Source: Terriglobia bacterium (GTDB lineage Bacteria; Acidobacteriota; Terriglobia; Terriglobales; Acidobacteriaceae). Taken from it: DNA of 48,656 nt. The translations under genes were made by a program, and so were the position numbers. The notes under the pieces were generated by a model. The model was given only the letters and a program-made list of their open reading frames with translations, had not been told where the DNA came from and did no database searches. Shown here piece by piece: positions 5,156-48,656 of the stretch; the first letter of the stretch is position 1; each line of letters begins with the position of its first letter. The DNA lies in assembly GCA_020073015.1 (NCBI GenBank), contig JAIQFZ010000018.1, forward strand, positions 1 to 48,656, given 5' to 3'.

Positions 5156-5701
5156 CTAGGGTAGCGCGACGCACCCCGCTGCACTCGATCTTGAGTCTCC
5201 CAGCCCGAACTGCGCGCCCACCCAGAGACTCGCGCTGATGACTCCGATCAGCCACGCGCGTCCCTCCGTGAATTGCTTCAGGACGATGGGACTGAATGCC
5301 AGGAACACACAATACATCGGTAGAATCCGGGCGAACCCGACTTGATTCCACAGCAAAGCCCCGGAGACAAATGTTTGCAGCGGGTGCGTTGCCCGATGCA
5401 TCCCGGTACCGGGAGAAAGGACAACCAGAATCCCCAGGACCAGCAGCGCGATGTGGGTCAGGTAGATCGTCCCGGTGCGCCGGAAGACTTTCGACACCAT
5501 CGCGGAGTTTCCGCTTCTCTGCCTCAGCGGAAGGTAAACCCAGCTGGAGACTAGTCCCGACAGAAAAACGAAGCCGTCCGGAGCCGAGGCGTAGCCGAAC
5601 GTGTACTCGGTGAAGCGTGCCAGGGGGTTGGGAAAGTGCCCCAATGACATCGCAACCAGGAAGTACCCACGCAACGTATCGACGCGCCAATCCCGCTGCA
5701 T
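5156..5701 (-). pseudogene. Truncated OpgC-like membrane acyltransferase fragment
   Basis: The frame begins MQRDWRVDTLRGYFLVAMSL and continues through a segment reading GYASAPDGFVFLSGLVSSW, which is typical of the N-terminal half of OpgC-family proteins (multi-pass membrane proteins related to glucan succinylation). About five hydrophobic helices are visible. The frame stops after about 182 residues with an unrelated polar tail (GDSRSSAAGCVALP). Family members usually have about 370-400 residues and ten helices, so roughly half is missing. I found no continuation in the other frames down to the DUF3857 gene. The start at the inner ATG is preferred because homology begins there; the upstream 14 residues are polar. 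Most likely a decayed gene. Confidence 0.6.
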
Positions 5702-5922
5702 GATAACTCTGGGGCAATCAGCATTCCGCCGGGAAGGCGGCATCCAGTGGCTCCTGGTGCTCGTTTAGCGCATACATGCGCAAAACCTTGCACGATCTGT
5801 GGAAAACCCTCCGTCCACCTAATATCGTTTCCCCGGCATGAAAGACGCCGCCCCCGGGCGGGCGTCTGTACCAAATCGGGAATCGGCATCCAGCGACTCA
5901 CGCAGATGGCTCGAAAGGCCGA

Positions 5923-5951
5923 TTGACAGCCGGAACCAAGGGGACTAGTTG
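5923..5951 (+). promoter_or_regulatory. Possible sigma-70-type promoter of the NHL gene
   Basis: A perfect TTGACA at 5923-5928 is followed after 17 bases by TAGTTG (5946-5951), a poor match to the -10 box. It would give a leader of about 70 bases before the ATG at 6032. Only the -35 box and the spacing are convincing. Confidence 0.25.
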
Positions 5952-6031
5952 TGGAGTGTACTGAGCCACAGACTCTCCGTTATCTGTAGCCCAGAAGACA
6001 GCCCGTTTCTGCGCCAACGAGGGGCACTTCC

Positions 6032-45744: not shown

Positions 45745-46326
45745 TGTTCGTATTTTCGGCGGATTTCGGCTCGACTGTAGAAGGCATGCCTCCGCCACGA
45801 CCGTCCCGCCGGTTCGTAGGCTTGACTCCCCTGTTACAATAAGTTATTGCGATGCAATGAAGTGTTTGCTCTTTGATAACAGAATGCGCGCTTCAGTTTT
45901 ACGGTAGACCGGGAACCGGGTGGAGCCGGCCTTCAGTGTGTGCGTAAGAACTAGCACTGCCGGCGACACGGTCGAACAGAGCTCTACGATCTTAGCCGCG
46001 AAGCGGCGTAAGAATGCAGCCCACGGCGCAAGCCGTGGCGAAAAGCGTGTGAATCAGTCAAGCCCCAGCGGGGCGAAAGACAACGTCTCACGCAATCTCT
46101 TTTTATGCCTGCAGATTAAGGTGTCAACCGACCCTCGGGCTTCAGCCCCAGCGGTCCCTCGGTAGGCGTGGCCTGCATGGACGGTGAAGCCACGATAACC
46201 CCAATGTTCTCTAGATTTTGGATGGGTAATTATCCCTTGACAGTAGGTATACATTTCGGGCAGCTTGTTGATTACAGGTTTGGCGACGGTCCACGCTATT
46301 ATCTGACCGAGCCAAAGGACATCAAT
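45745..46326. other. Long spacer marking the edge of the accessory region
   Basis: About 580 bases without a supported gene. 45745-45993 shows nothing recognisable; 45994-46157 holds the repeat cluster listed separately. A forward frame at 45920-46165 is the translation of that cluster and is rejected. 46168-46326 is in frame with the protease downstream but has no ribosome binding site at its GTG. Confidence 0.55.
45994..46157 (+). repeat. Cluster of short palindromic repeats
   Basis: AGCCGCGAAGCGGC (45994-46007), CCACGGCGCAAGCCGTGG (46021-46038), GCCCCAGCGGGGC (46062-46074) and GGGCTTCAGCCCC (46138-46150) follow one another. Each is a small hairpin with a GAA-, CAA- or TTCA-type centre. 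Same general class as 10874-10919. Confidence 0.75.
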
Positions 46327-47271
46327 ATGCGCGTGCCCGATCAGGTTCTTAAGACCGTGGTCTTTGTCGGTCTACCGGAAATTCCGGACCCGGAATACCG
46401 TGGAACCGCATTCATCGTGACCGCCCCCGGAACCCAGAGTAATCATTTTGCGTTCATGGTGACTGCCCGCCACGTTGCTGAAAAGCTAGAAGGGAATGAC
46501 TTCTATATTCGAGCCAATAAAAAGCGCGGTGGTATGGCAGAGCTGCGCGGCTTTGCTGACAACCCGTGGTGGTACCACCCCACTGAGCGCGAGTATGTGG
46601 ATTGTGCGGTCACCCTGTTCTCGCCTGCCCGCCTAGCCGAGTTGGACGTAGAGCATATCCCCATCGGGCTCTTTGCGGATAAAGAGAAAATCAAGGCACA
46701 CAATATTGGGATTGGGGACGAGGTTTTCATCGCGGGCCTGTTCACTAAGATCACCGAGACTTCCCAGAACATCCCGATTGTCCGAAGTGGTAACGTCGCG
46801 ATGATGCCCGATGAGAGAATCCCGTTTCATGGTGGCATGTATGATGCGCATTTGATCGAGTCGCGCTCTATCGGCGGACTGAGCGGATCACCCGTTTTCG
46901 TCAGGCCGACACTCCAATTGCAAATTGGCACCGAAAACGATGAACCCGTCATTCTAAACGGCCCCGGCAAGATATTGTTTTTTGGTTCGGTGGTTGGTCA
47001 CTGGGAAGTTCCAGAAGGATTCACGCCCACCCAGGCCGAGGCCGTTAACATGGGGATCGCACCAATGGTTCCGGCGCTGAAGATCAAAGAGGTAATCTTG
47101 CAACCAAGGTTGGTAGAGATGATGAAAAAGATTAACGATGAGATGCGTGCCAAGAATCAGAAAGGCGCGAAGCTGGATTTTGCCCCGAGCGAAAAGAAGC
47201 CATTCACGCAAGAGGAGTTTGAGACCGCGCTAAAGAAGGCCAGCCGCAAGATCGGATCACCTAAGAAGTAG
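46327..47271 (+). CDS. Trypsin-fold serine protease, stand-alone
   Basis: 314 residues from the ATG at 46327, which has AAGGA 7 bases upstream; the frame is open to a GTG at 46168 but that codon has no ribosome binding site and lies at the repeat cluster. A chymotrypsin-like triad is visible in order: His49 (FMVTARHVAEKL), Asp92 (EYVDCAVTLF) and Ser186 (GGLSGSPVF, the GxSGSP form seen in S1-like bacterial proteases). The C-terminal 60 residues (about 255-314) are charged and helical with many lysines. No signal peptide, so it should act in the cytoplasm, where trypsin-fold proteases are often parts of conflict or stress systems. It converges on the small membrane-protein gene with only 8 bases between the stops. 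Substrate unknown. Confidence 0.85.
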   Translation: MRVPDQVLKTVVFVGLPEIPDPEYRGTAFIVTAPGTQSNHFAFMVTARHVAEKLEGNDFYIRANKKRGGMAELRGFADNPWWYHPTEREYVDCAVTLFSPARLAELDVEHIPIGLFADKEKIKAHNIGIGDEVFIAGLFTKITETSQNIPIVRSGNVAMMPDERIPFHGGMYDAHLIESRSIGGLSGSPVFVRPTLQLQIGTENDEPVILNGPGKILFFGSVVGHWEVPEGFTPTQAEAVNMGIAPMVPALKIKEVILQPRLVEMMKKINDEMRAKNQKGAKLDFAPSEKKPFTQEEFETALKKASRKIGSPKK

Positions 47272-47279
47272 GGGATCAG

Positions 47280-47507
47280 TCAAAAAACGTGGGATCGGCC
47301 CGCACGATGAAATAGGCGAAGGGTTTTGGCAAGGGCCATGCGAAGACACGGAAAGACCACTAGAACGAGCACGAGGACCACAAGCCCACGCCACAGGCCA
47401 AACCACCAAAAGCCACCAATCGCGGCTGCCACTTGCAACAGATAGGTCACAAAACTCGTGACGGTCGAGATTAAGAACAGTCGGTCAGCGGTAAACAATT
47501 TGATCAC
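47280..47507 (-). CDS. Small membrane protein, unknown function
   Basis: 75 residues with a GTG start and only a distant GAGGG as ribosome binding site. Two hydrophobic segments (about 12-35 and 39-55; VVLVLVLVVFPCL) and a basic C-terminus (RLFHRAGRSHVF). No family recognised. It begins 25 bases after the stop of the proteasome-like gene, so it probably sits at the end of the same transcript; this linkage is the main reason to keep it. Confidence 0.55.
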   Translation of the reverse strand: MIKLFTADRLFLISTVTSFVTYLLQVAAAIGGFWWFGLWRGLVVLVLVLVVFPCLRMALAKTLRLFHRAGRSHVF

Positions 47508-47532: not shown

Positions 47533-48297
47533 TCACTTACTGTACGACATGACTACAACAGGCTTGCCATGCTGAAGGGTAGCAATACTAAACGGAGGCC
47601 CGACCGTTTCAGGATTAGCTTTGGCTTCCAGTGCAATGACAGATCTGGCTATGTTTCGCAGTTCATCCAGACCGACTTTTTCCCCTCCGAGCAGCCTTCC
47701 GAAGCTTCCATCCGTGCGAACGAGCATATCCTCGTAAGTGTCACCGTTCCCACTGAAAGCTTTTTTGATCTCGCCGATCCTCCCTACCTCGTGGTGCAAG
47801 AACGAATTAATTGGGGATGGCCGGTCCAAGTGAACGGTTGTCTTGAAGACAATTTTCCAATTCATACCATCCACGGATGCTCGCACTGTCACCACGGAGA
47901 ATCTTTCGGCCACAATGGAAACGACAAGAAATTCTGCAAGATAACCTTTCCCTTTCTGATACTCGTAGAGGCTATAGGCTTGCCGTTCCACCTTGAAAAT
48001 ATCGACGAATGGGTGGGTCGCTTCAATAAGGCTAGCGATTGTACGAGCATCAGTAGCGAACTGGAAGTTTTGTTCAACTTTAGCCATCCACTCATCAGCC
48101 CGATAGTAGATGACTCCCGTTTCCATCTTGTAAAGTGCTCCCAATCCTTCGCAAGCGATTATGCAGTTATGAATCGGCCTAAGTTTGGTCATGCTGTCGA
48201 TTGGGCAATTCTTACTGCCAGCCATGCTGTCTGCACCAATGACGATGCAGTCACCTGCAATGAGGCAAAAAATGGTAGTGCCACAATAACTTTTCAT
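47533..48297 (-). CDS. Stand-alone proteasome-beta-like Ntn hydrolase
   Basis: 254 residues from the ATG at 48297 (GGGAG just upstream; the frame is open to 48363 but that lies over the insertion sequence). The start MKSYCGTTIF gives a six-residue propeptide ending in Gly, then Thr-Thr: cleavage would expose Thr7 as the N-terminal nucleophile. With Thr7 as Thr1, Asp23 (VIGADSMAG) falls at position 17 and Lys38 (SMTKLRP) at position 32, against Asp17 and Lys33 of the proteasome beta subunit. The following CIIACEGLGALY matches the GTMAGGAAD loop region. The fold and active site therefore look intact. It is longer than HslV (about 175 residues), has no neighbouring ATPase, alpha subunit or HslU, and no Mpa/ARC genes are in view. 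It is probably a peptidase or amidase acting without a canonical unfoldase; its substrate is unknown. Confidence 0.82.
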   Translation of the reverse strand: MKSYCGTTIFCLIAGDCIVIGADSMAGSKNCPIDSMTKLRPIHNCIIACEGLGALYKMETGVIYYRADEWMAKVEQNFQFATDARTIASLIEATHPFVDIFKVERQAYSLYEYQKGKGYLAEFLVVSIVAERFSVVTVRASVDGMNWKIVFKTTVHLDRPSPINSFLHHEVGRIGEIKKAFSGNGDTYEDMLVRTDGSFGRLLGGEKVGLDELRNIARSVIALEAKANPETVGPPFSIATLQHGKPVVVMSYSK

Positions 48298-48656
48298 CGA
48301 ACTCCCGCCAAAGAATTGGGCGGCTGCGCTCGTAACGACGAAACCATAGTCAAAAAGGTTCAATCATCACCGACTCACGACGTATAACCGCATCCCGCTT
48401 CTCTACTTGCCGCAAGAAGCTGAGAAACATCGGCTGCACGTCGAAACGCCGGTTGTAGCGGAAGCTGTACTCATTTAAGTAGGTTTGCAGATAGTGCCGA
48501 CCAACCGAATGATAGACGCCCCGAATCCCGGTTTTTACAAGCGCCCAGAATCCGTCAATGGTGTTCGTGTGAACGTCGCCCATCACGTAGATTTTTTCGC
48601 TGTGATTTATGCGCCGATGAACGTACTCGTTGTAGTGTCGATCCATCACATCATAG
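48298..48656 (-). mobile_element. IS1595-family insertion sequence, right end, partial
   Basis: Holds the end of the transposase gene and, somewhere between 48298 and 48349, the terminal inverted repeat. The other end is outside the window, so the repeat and target-site duplication cannot be defined. The left boundary given here is the largest possible extent. Confidence 0.6.
48350..48655 (-). CDS. IS1595-family (ISXO2-like) transposase, C-terminal part
   Basis: About 102 residues; the frame stays open to the window edge (reading ...YDVMDRHYNEYVHRR), so the N-terminal part lies outside. The segment GDVHTNTIDGFWALVKTG, followed by YHSVGRHYLQTYLNEYSFRY and NRR, is the signature of the DDE/DDN catalytic domain of ISXO2-like transposases. 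The stop is 52 bases from the start of the proteasome-like gene on the same strand, so the end of the element falls within this gap. Confidence 0.88.
   Translation of the reverse strand, partial: YDVMDRHYNEYVHRRINHSEKIYVMGDVHTNTIDGFWALVKTGIRGVYHSVGRHYLQTYLNEYSFRYNRRFDVQPMFLSFLRQVEKRDAVIRRESVMIEPF

What the first reader, a model, noticed from the sequence alone, without database searches (positions are those of the whole stretch)
47533..48297. Stand-alone proteasome-beta-like hydrolase with an intact active site
The protein has Thr-Thr after a six-residue propeptide, Asp at position 17 and Lys at position 32 relative to the first Thr, which matches proteasome beta subunits. There is no alpha subunit, HslU, ClpX or Mpa gene in the neighbourhood, and at 254 residues it is bigger than HslV. 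Bacterial Ntn hydrolases outside the known proteasome, HslV and Anbu groups are poorly understood. Its presence in an A/T-richer patch beside a transposase suggests an accessory role.
Basis: partly seen in the sequence, partly recalled or inferred. Interest (0 to 1): 0.8.

Follow-up and report, generated by a model that had tools for sequence, protein, structure and literature searches.

The report
Proteasome-like hydrolase carried by a transposon
A jumping gene of a soil bacterium carries a relative of the cell's protein-shredding machine, an offshoot of a little-known family whose other members seem to be exported from the cell, which gives a new test case for how such enzymes work alone.

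Summary
The gene (47533-48297, minus) encodes 254 aa beginning MKSYCG|TT, with Thr1, Asp17, Lys32, Gly45; Pfam Proteasome scores 17.4 bits (cut-off 22.4), NCBIfam nothing. (1) It is a passenger inside an IS1595-type transposon: terminal inverted repeat at 46225-46249, trypsin-like protease gene, small membrane ORF, this gene, transposase. The contig breaks in the transposase; contig C164 carries the matching end with the same 8-bp target duplication. Of 34 other loci of the trypsin-like gene fetched, 24 have the same convergent pair, 15 of these with other ORFs between (ClpP-like and dCTP deaminase-like in one each). (2) Its relatives form an Acidobacteriota family of proteasome-like proteins with predicted signal peptides right before the nucleophile; the window protein and one 47%-identical orthologue (MTANCG|TT) lack them and probably act in the cytosol. 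A profile of 31 signal-bearing members scores the window protein 49 bits, own HslV 19, shuffles at most 8.5. AlphaFold gave no usable model. Substrate, assembly and role are unknown; best guess a stand-alone threonine hydrolase. New variant of a known kind.

The parts
46217..46224 (.). 8-bp target-site duplication TTTGGATG; the same 8 bp follow the terminal repeat on contig C164 of the same genome
46225..46249 (+). left terminal inverted repeat of the transposon, GGTAATTATCCCTTGACAGTAGGTA
46327..47271 (+). trypsin-like serine protease gene, 314 aa from the conserved MRVPD start (the 46168 GTG start of the mechanical ORF lies outside the repeat); His102, Asp145, Ser239 in the numbering of the 367-aa ORF are invariant in 12 of 12 rows; no signal peptide by eye; PADLOC candidate PDC-S45
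47280..47507 (-). possible small membrane protein, 75 aa, GTG start, 25 bp downstream of the hydrolase gene on the same strand; not confirmed as a gene
47533..48297 (-). proteasome-like Ntn hydrolase, 254 aa; nucleophile Thr7 (=Thr1), Asp23 (=17), Lys38 (=32), Gly51 (=45)
48280..48297 (-). codons of the six-residue leader MKSYCG, expected to be removed to free Thr1 (orthologue: MTANCG)
   Evidence: removal is inference
48350..48656 (-). 3' part of the IS1595-family transposase gene, cut by the contig end; 87% nucleotide identity over 271 bp to the copy on contig C20

Best explanation
The protein belongs to a divergent family of proteasome-like N-terminal-nucleophile hydrolases of Acidobacteriota whose other members carry predicted signal peptides; it and one orthologue have none. 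SHOWN by sequence: homology to that family and through it to HslV; Asp17, Lys32 and Gly45 conserved around a Thr-Thr; a six-residue leader ending Cys-Gly; location as cargo inside an IS1595-type transposon that also carries a trypsin-like protease without visible signal peptide. INFERRED: the leader is cut at Gly6-Thr7 (by the protein itself, as in HslV and proteasome beta, or by another protease, possibly the transposon's own), the freed Thr acts with Asp17 and Lys32, Gly45 supplies the oxyanion hole, and the enzyme works in the cytosol without an ATP-driven unfoldase on small or unfolded substrates, alone or as a homo-oligomer. In the signal-bearing relatives the signal-peptidase cut would bare the nucleophile directly or nearly so. 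As transposon cargo it is an accessory function, most likely of use to the element or its host in conflicts with other mobile elements; the target is unknown.
For: Pfam Proteasome 17.4 bits over residues 6-71. First family profile (12 proteins, without the window protein): 21.3 bits, E 8.8e-6 for 1000 sequences. Profile of 31 signal-bearing members, without the window protein and its orthologue: 49.0 bits for it, 40.5 for the orthologue, 19.3 for own HslV; best shuffles 6.7, 4.8, 8.5; best trypsin-like control -1.7. PDB search with family profile A1: the first 14 of 53 hits are proteasome chains, best E 0.0024, N-terminal part only. Untrimmed 12-row alignment: Ser18 and Lys32 invariant, Asp17 and Gly45 nearly so; 33 rows: Lys32 33 of 33, Gly45 32 of 33. 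Orthologue 47% identical over the full length with the same CG-TT. Hydrophobic segment before the nucleophile in 33 of 34 signal-bearing rows by script, the 34th by eye. Transposon: repeat pair in 10 of 10 loci tested; exact 8-bp duplication in 14 of 17 two-ended elements against 1 of 272 cross-pairs with at most one mismatch; transposase convergent with the trypsin-like gene in 24 of 34 other loci.
Against: No usable AlphaFold model (pLDDT 32.3 alone, 34.0 with two relatives); Foldseek with the second model found nothing at E 0.001. Direct Pfam score below cut-off. The 31-member set was gathered partly with an alignment that held the window protein (A6), so the 49 bits are not fully independent; one search is the freer test, though one of its 12 proteins (P0002) was itself found with the window protein. 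Profile-profile comparison put the family first (E 0.0021; HslV 0.025, Anbu 0.13, trypsin 0.42), but its positive control, Anbu against HslV, failed. Signal peptides were judged by hydropathy, without a predictor or control. Only one orthologue was found; no transposon was seen around it, but its contig ends about 1.5 kb upstream. Proteasome-like cargo is in 1 of 25 elements. No activity, processing or partner is shown.
Confidence: 0.6

Rival explanations
1. A degenerate passenger: the gene was captured by the transposon and is no longer expressed or active; the intact residues are history.
For: One proteasome-like cargo among 25 elements; 9 of 25 elements have no or almost no room for cargo. 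Promoters were not examined.
Against: Full-length ORF with the catalytic residues, GGAG before the start; differences from the orthologue fall mostly at third codon positions (102/69/143) and length differences are whole codons.
Confidence: 0.15
2. A specific ligase, transpeptidase or amidase rather than a general protease, like archaeal connectase, a monomeric proteasome-like protein ligase (PMC8665760, parts read).
For: Stand-alone gene, no unfoldase seen, longer than HslV (254 aa against a 200-aa frame), found in few genomes.
Against: Connectase's two-helix insertion could not be looked for without a structure; no substrate or partner is known.
Confidence: 0.2
3. An effector of a mobile anti-phage module: the trypsin-like protein senses or triggers, and the swappable cargo (proteasome-like, ClpP-like, dCTP deaminase-like, 2TM proteins) acts on cell or phage.
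For: PADLOC candidate PDC-S45 matched by 4 of 4 trypsin-like proteins scanned, E 4.9e-14 to 5.4e-9; ClpP cargo PF00574 E 1e-17; dCTP deaminase-like cargo PF22769 E 4.6e-19, hydrophobic C-terminus by eye; weak 2TM effector match E 0.0029.
Against: PDC-S45 is a candidate model; the ClpP-like, dCTP deaminase-like and window cargo have no PADLOC match; 9 of 25 elements have no cargo; other cargo ORFs are zinc-ribbon-like, lipoprotein-like or unnamed; the orthologue was not seen in a transposon.
Confidence: 0.25

Closest known systems
HslV (ClpQ)
   Same: Thr-Thr nucleophile after a short leader, Asp17, Lys, oxyanion Gly; the family profile scores the own-genome HslV 19.3 bits
   Different: 254 aa against a 200-aa frame; Lys at 32; no HslV model match in NCBIfam; a separate HslV gene lies on contig C118 of the same genome
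20S proteasome beta subunit (Pfam PF00227)
   Same: Same catalytic residues, Gly before Thr1
   Different: Below Pfam's cut-off (17.4 against 22.4 bits); the genome's only other PF00227 matches are HslV and one signal-bearing relative
Anbu, BPH, connectase and the 22 proteasome-like families of Fuchs et al. 2021 (PMC8665760, parts 1-4 of 6 and a word search seen)
   Same: Prokaryotic proteasome-like proteins without known unfoldase, some mobile (PPH and AAH in phages)
   Different: [quoted passage not shown] the words for Acidobacteria, signal peptide, secretion and periplasm do not occur in its main text. Its alignments were not available, so membership of one of its clusters is not excluded
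IS1595-family elements
   Same: IS1595 transposase, terminal inverted repeats, 8-bp duplications (as in ISApl4, PMC12561309, passages seen)
   Different: Constant trypsin-like passenger convergent with the transposase and a variable slot between. That IS1595 elements can carry passenger genes is recalled (Siguier 2009; only its title was seen, in a reference list)

Membership tests
Proteasome-like Ntn hydrolases (broad sense) | Thr/Ser1, Asp17, Lys33-equivalent, Gly47-equivalent | tested here: met
   T7, D23, K38, G51
Proteasome-like Ntn hydrolases (broad sense) | Significant sequence link to a known member | tested here: met
   Indirect: family profile to own HslV 19.3 bits against a shuffle maximum of 8.5, profile A1 to PDB proteasome beta E 0.0024. 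The direct Pfam hit is below cut-off
Proteasome-like Ntn hydrolases (broad sense) | alpha-beta-beta-alpha fold | tested here: inconclusive
   AlphaFold pLDDT 32.3 and 34.0; Foldseek best E 0.37
Proteasome-like Ntn hydrolases (broad sense) | Mature N-terminal threonine and hydrolase activity | not testable with these tools
   needs protein
HslV | HslV or proteasome model above cut-off | tested here: not met
HslV | HslU gene beside it | tested here: not met
   none among the transposon's ORFs; whole window by Walker A regex only
20S proteasome beta subunit | PF00227 above cut-off and an alpha subunit in the genome | tested here: not met
   17.4 against 22.4 bits; three PF00227 matches at E 1 in the genome: HslV, one signal-bearing relative, this protein
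Anbu | Similarity to Anbu proteins | tested here: inconclusive
   hhalign E 0.13, in a test whose positive control failed; starts MKSYCGTT, not MTYC.GIK as L058, L060, L061, whose Anbu label is recalled
Fuchs 2021 clusters (WPH, PHI, PMI, AAH, PPH and others) | Membership of a published cluster | not testable with these tools
   alignments not held
Acidobacteriota signal-bearing proteasome-like family (this report) | Profile match, conserved Asp17, Lys32, Gly45 and C-terminal V-G-x-P motif | tested here: met
   21.3 bits, 49.0 bits, VGPPFSIATL
Acidobacteriota signal-bearing proteasome-like family (this report) | Signal peptide before the nucleophile | tested here: not met
   leader of six residues only, in it and in its orthologue
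IS1595-type transposon (the surrounding element) | IS1595 transposase, terminal inverted repeats, 8-bp target duplication | tested here: met
   the middle of the window copy's transposase is not assembled and the right end lies on another contig

The most novel reading that the evidence does not exclude
Acidobacteriota hold two linked novelties: an exported branch of the proteasome family whose catalytic threonine is bared by signal peptidase rather than by self-cleavage, and a family of IS1595 transposons that carry a constant trypsin-like protease plus a swappable effector slot (proteasome-like, ClpP-like, dCTP deaminase-like) and act as mobile conflict modules; the window protein is where the two meet.
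Probability: 0.25. Interest if true: 0.85.

Novelty: new variant of a known kind. Interest (0 to 1): 0.6.

Why it matters
It points to a branch of the proteasome family that seems to leave the cytosol, in which export machinery may free the N-terminal nucleophile, and gives a small, apparently unfoldase-free cytosolic member for testing what such enzymes do alone. A transposon with one constant protease passenger and one variable slot makes the role of both testable.

Tried and rejected
Rejected: the start at the upstream TTG (48363), which overlaps the transposase and is not matched in the orthologue. Rejected: a signal peptide cut off by the IS insertion; I held this early (note) until the orthologue with the same short leader turned up. 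Rejected: the antisense ORF as the gene.

Led nowhere: phmmer against PDB (two unrelated chains at E 0.59); genome contigs with the protein and viral contigs with the protein, P0002, the trypsin-like protein and the pair P0001 plus orthologue: no relative each time; genome contigs with A2 gave only two loci, which match rows already in A2; tblastn against plasmids and phages: two records each at E 1 or worse, short; orthologue against plasmids: none. Draw of 396 genomes of the phylum: the own genome and one short match at E 0.00999. Single-protein search of 200 relatives: 35 genomes with E up to 1, mostly short matches; at least L007 and the G470 match later proved relatives. Both AlphaFold jobs gave no usable model. 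hhalign with small alignments failed its positive control.

Literature: 7 searches, lists capped (for example 10 of 1,283). No title or abstract start in these lists reports exported bacterial proteasome homologues or this transposon; many subscription papers are not held. PMC8665760: parts 1-4 of 6 and a word search. PMC12561309: passages. All others: listing only.

Rows dropped: one C-terminal fragment (L073_966) before the counts; three short members (133-177-aa frames or a replaced C-terminus) left out of the tree; 15 of 35 further trypsin-like matches not fetched.

Full report
CHECK OF THE OBSERVATION. The ORF at 47533-48297 minus is as described: 254 aa, MKSYCG|TTIFCLIAGDCIVIGADSMAG...SMTKL. 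Pfam gives only the Proteasome family, E 0.0037, 17.4 bits against a cut-off of 22.4, over residues 6-71; NCBIfam, PHROGs and PADLOC give nothing for it. The genome (5.5 Mb, 245 contigs) holds three PF00227 matches at E 1: a normal HslV on C118, a divergent protein on C114 (22.9 bits, just over the cut-off), and this one.

RELATIVES. In 200 relatives the protein alone finds weak matches. One of them, in the same genus (L007/L064, protein P0002), aligns at E 1e-6 in a two-sequence comparison over residues 62-241; it begins with a signal-peptide-like stretch ending CCYS|TTVVF. Starting from the C114 protein (P0003), which has a signal-like stretch before HG|TIVV, 20 of 200 relatives had matches at E 0.01; about half of the matching places are only a C-terminal stretch shared with unrelated frames, the others are a family with signal-like N-terminus, then G/A-T/S, D17 and K. 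With an alignment of 12 (A6) 36 of 398 genomes of the bacterial family match at E 0.001. From the loci held I took 36 proteins, window protein and orthologue included, plus one C-terminal fragment that I dropped; their reading frames are 263-443 aa, short fragments aside. NCBIfam matches 0 of the 12 members of A6; Pfam at E 0.05 only the window protein, below cut-off. Two members have named records, Acidobacteriaceae MAGs from bog and palsa (L120, L121); they equal proteins of genomes marked as the window's own genus, so the window is Acidobacteriota (inference).

ORTHOLOGUE. L163 (G754 contig C111) is a real orthologue: 268 aa, 126 of 268 identical (47%), E 5e-83, beginning MTANCG|TTIFG. It has no signal peptide; its upstream DNA looks unlike that of the window gene (by eye). 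It lies near a small gene pair that looks like ribbon-helix-helix/PIN (names from recall). No IS1595 transposase, trypsin-like gene or terminal repeat was found in the 11.4 kb fetched, but the contig ends about 1.5 kb upstream of it. In 45 genomes of its genus only G754 has the full protein; three others have partial matches, two of them in the genomes of the signal-bearing relatives L158 and L162.

IS IT REALLY PROTEASOME-LIKE? A first profile of 12 proteins without the window protein gives it 21.3 bits (E 8.8e-6 for 1000 sequences, two collinear pieces). A profile of 31 signal-bearing members, without the window protein and L163, gives 49.0 and 40.5 bits for these and 19.3 for own HslV; of 1000 shuffles each, those that HMMER reported (661, 591, 882) reach at most 6.7, 4.8 and 8.5; trypsin-like controls -1.7 at best. 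Many of the 31 were gathered with A6, which held the window protein, so its own 49 bits are not fully independent; the HslV score does not suffer from this. PDB search with family profile A1 finds proteasome chains as the first 14 of 53 hits, best E 0.0024, over the N-terminal part only; weaker hits include unrelated proteins. In the untrimmed alignment A6, Ser18 and Lys32 are invariant and Asp17, Gly45 and Gly227 nearly so. In 33 rows Lys32 is 33 of 33 and Gly45 32 of 33; Thr/Ser1 (25 T, 6 S) and Asp17 (32 D, 1 E) are near-constant too, but I had trimmed on that pattern. Profile-profile comparison ranks the family first (E 0.0021), then HslV 0.025, Anbu 0.13, trypsin 0.42, but its positive control failed. 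Structure prediction failed (pLDDT 32.3 and 34.0). Foldseek with the second model had no hit at E 0.001; its top three are 20S proteasome chains at E 0.37-0.42; I give that no weight.

SIGNAL PEPTIDE AND NUCLEOPHILE. In 33 of 34 signal-bearing rows a 12-residue window of mean hydropathy 1.57 or more lies within 32 residues before the nucleophile; for L083 the script took a wrong nucleophile, and a hydrophobic stretch is visible by eye. No predictor and no control was run. By eye, in 11 of 34 the nucleophile directly follows a small residue, as in AKAHA|TTIVIGYSK or PVWA|TTVIALID, so a signal-peptidase cut there would bare it; in others a short linker, mostly ending in Gly, remains. In the tree the window protein and L163 (100/99) join the signal-bearing L064, L158 and L162 (96/81), which suggests loss of the signal in this branch; branches are long and the root is arbitrary.

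THE TRANSPOSON. The own genome has a second transposase copy on C20, beside a homologue of the window's trypsin-like gene. Relatives of that gene were found in 13 of 200 genomes, own included, and with an alignment in 45 of 398. I fetched all 14 other matches of the first list and 20 of the 35 further matches of the second. In 12 of 14 and 12 of 20 the transposase lies convergent with the trypsin-like gene; in L115 it is a distant one (39% identity) and, as in L116, no repeat was found. The repeat GGTAATTATCCCTTGACAGTAGGTA flanks the pair in 10 of 10 loci tested. Both ends are readable in 17 loci: 14 of 17 have exact 8-bp duplications, L128 has one if shifted by a base, L125 has one mismatch, L106 none; cross-pairs 1 of 272 with at most one mismatch. 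The window's left repeat is at 46225-46249, preceded by TTTGGATG; the repeat on C164 is followed by TTTGGATG. The first 139 bases of C164 are identical to the C20 copy, so that C164 holds the window element's end rests on the 8-bp match; C20's known flank (TTTGGAGT) does not pair with C164 as a direct repeat.

CARGO. Of 25 elements (24 plus the window) 9 have no or almost no room between transposase and trypsin-like gene, 16 have further ORFs (ORFs are mechanical, not all need be genes). Named by Pfam: ClpP in L113 (E 1e-17) and dCTP deaminase-like in L126 (E 4.6e-19; that element is cut by its contig). Proteasome-like cargo is in 1 of 25, the window's. The trypsin-like proteins keep His, Asp and Ser in 12 of 12 rows and share a tail of the type FTK.DFE.AL.K.SRK in 11 of 12. 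Four of four scanned match PADLOC's candidate PDC-S45.

WHAT IT DOES. My reading: a cytosolic threonine hydrolase, freed by removal of MKSYCG, working without an unfoldase, brought in as accessory cargo. The chemistry follows from the family; substrate, oligomer and benefit are inference. A role in conflict with phages or other elements is attractive because of the cargo company, but untested.

KNOWN OR NEW. [quoted passage not shown] their main text has no mention of Acidobacteria, signal peptides or secretion. I could not compare with their alignments, so I do not claim a family new to science; it is one for which NCBIfam has no model, Pfam catches at most stray members (P0003 over the cut-off), and my seven literature searches show no description.

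Noticed in passing
window 45994-46039, minus: Acido-Lenti-1 RNA (RF01687), 44.5 bits against a gathering score of 37, about 190 bp left of the transposon end.
   Followed up: no
L113 (G410:C10) 5440-6027 +: ClpP-like protease (PF00574 E 1e-17) as cargo between IS1595 transposase and trypsin-like gene, in an element with an exact 8-bp duplication.
   Followed up: partly
L126 (G642:C185) 2121-2777 -: dCTP deaminase-like protein (PF22769) with a hydrophobic C-terminus (by eye) as cargo in the same kind of element.
   Followed up: no
trypsin-like genes, e.g. window 47203-47271, alignment A5: C-terminal tail of the type FTK.DFE.AL.K.SRK in 11 of 12 rows, beyond the protease domain; purpose unknown.
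   Followed up: no
L055, L056, L057, L059, L062, L063: Another group of stand-alone PF00227 proteins in the same bacterial class with (M/V)-T-(I/V)-A at the likely start, 233-353-aa reading frames.
   Followed up: no
L053 (G000:C114): A signal-bearing proteasome-like protein of the own genome whose C-terminal part looks replaced by a sequence shared with many unrelated frames (PPIFSPGIMRLSPGLGS), perhaps a frameshift or pseudogene.
   Followed up: partly
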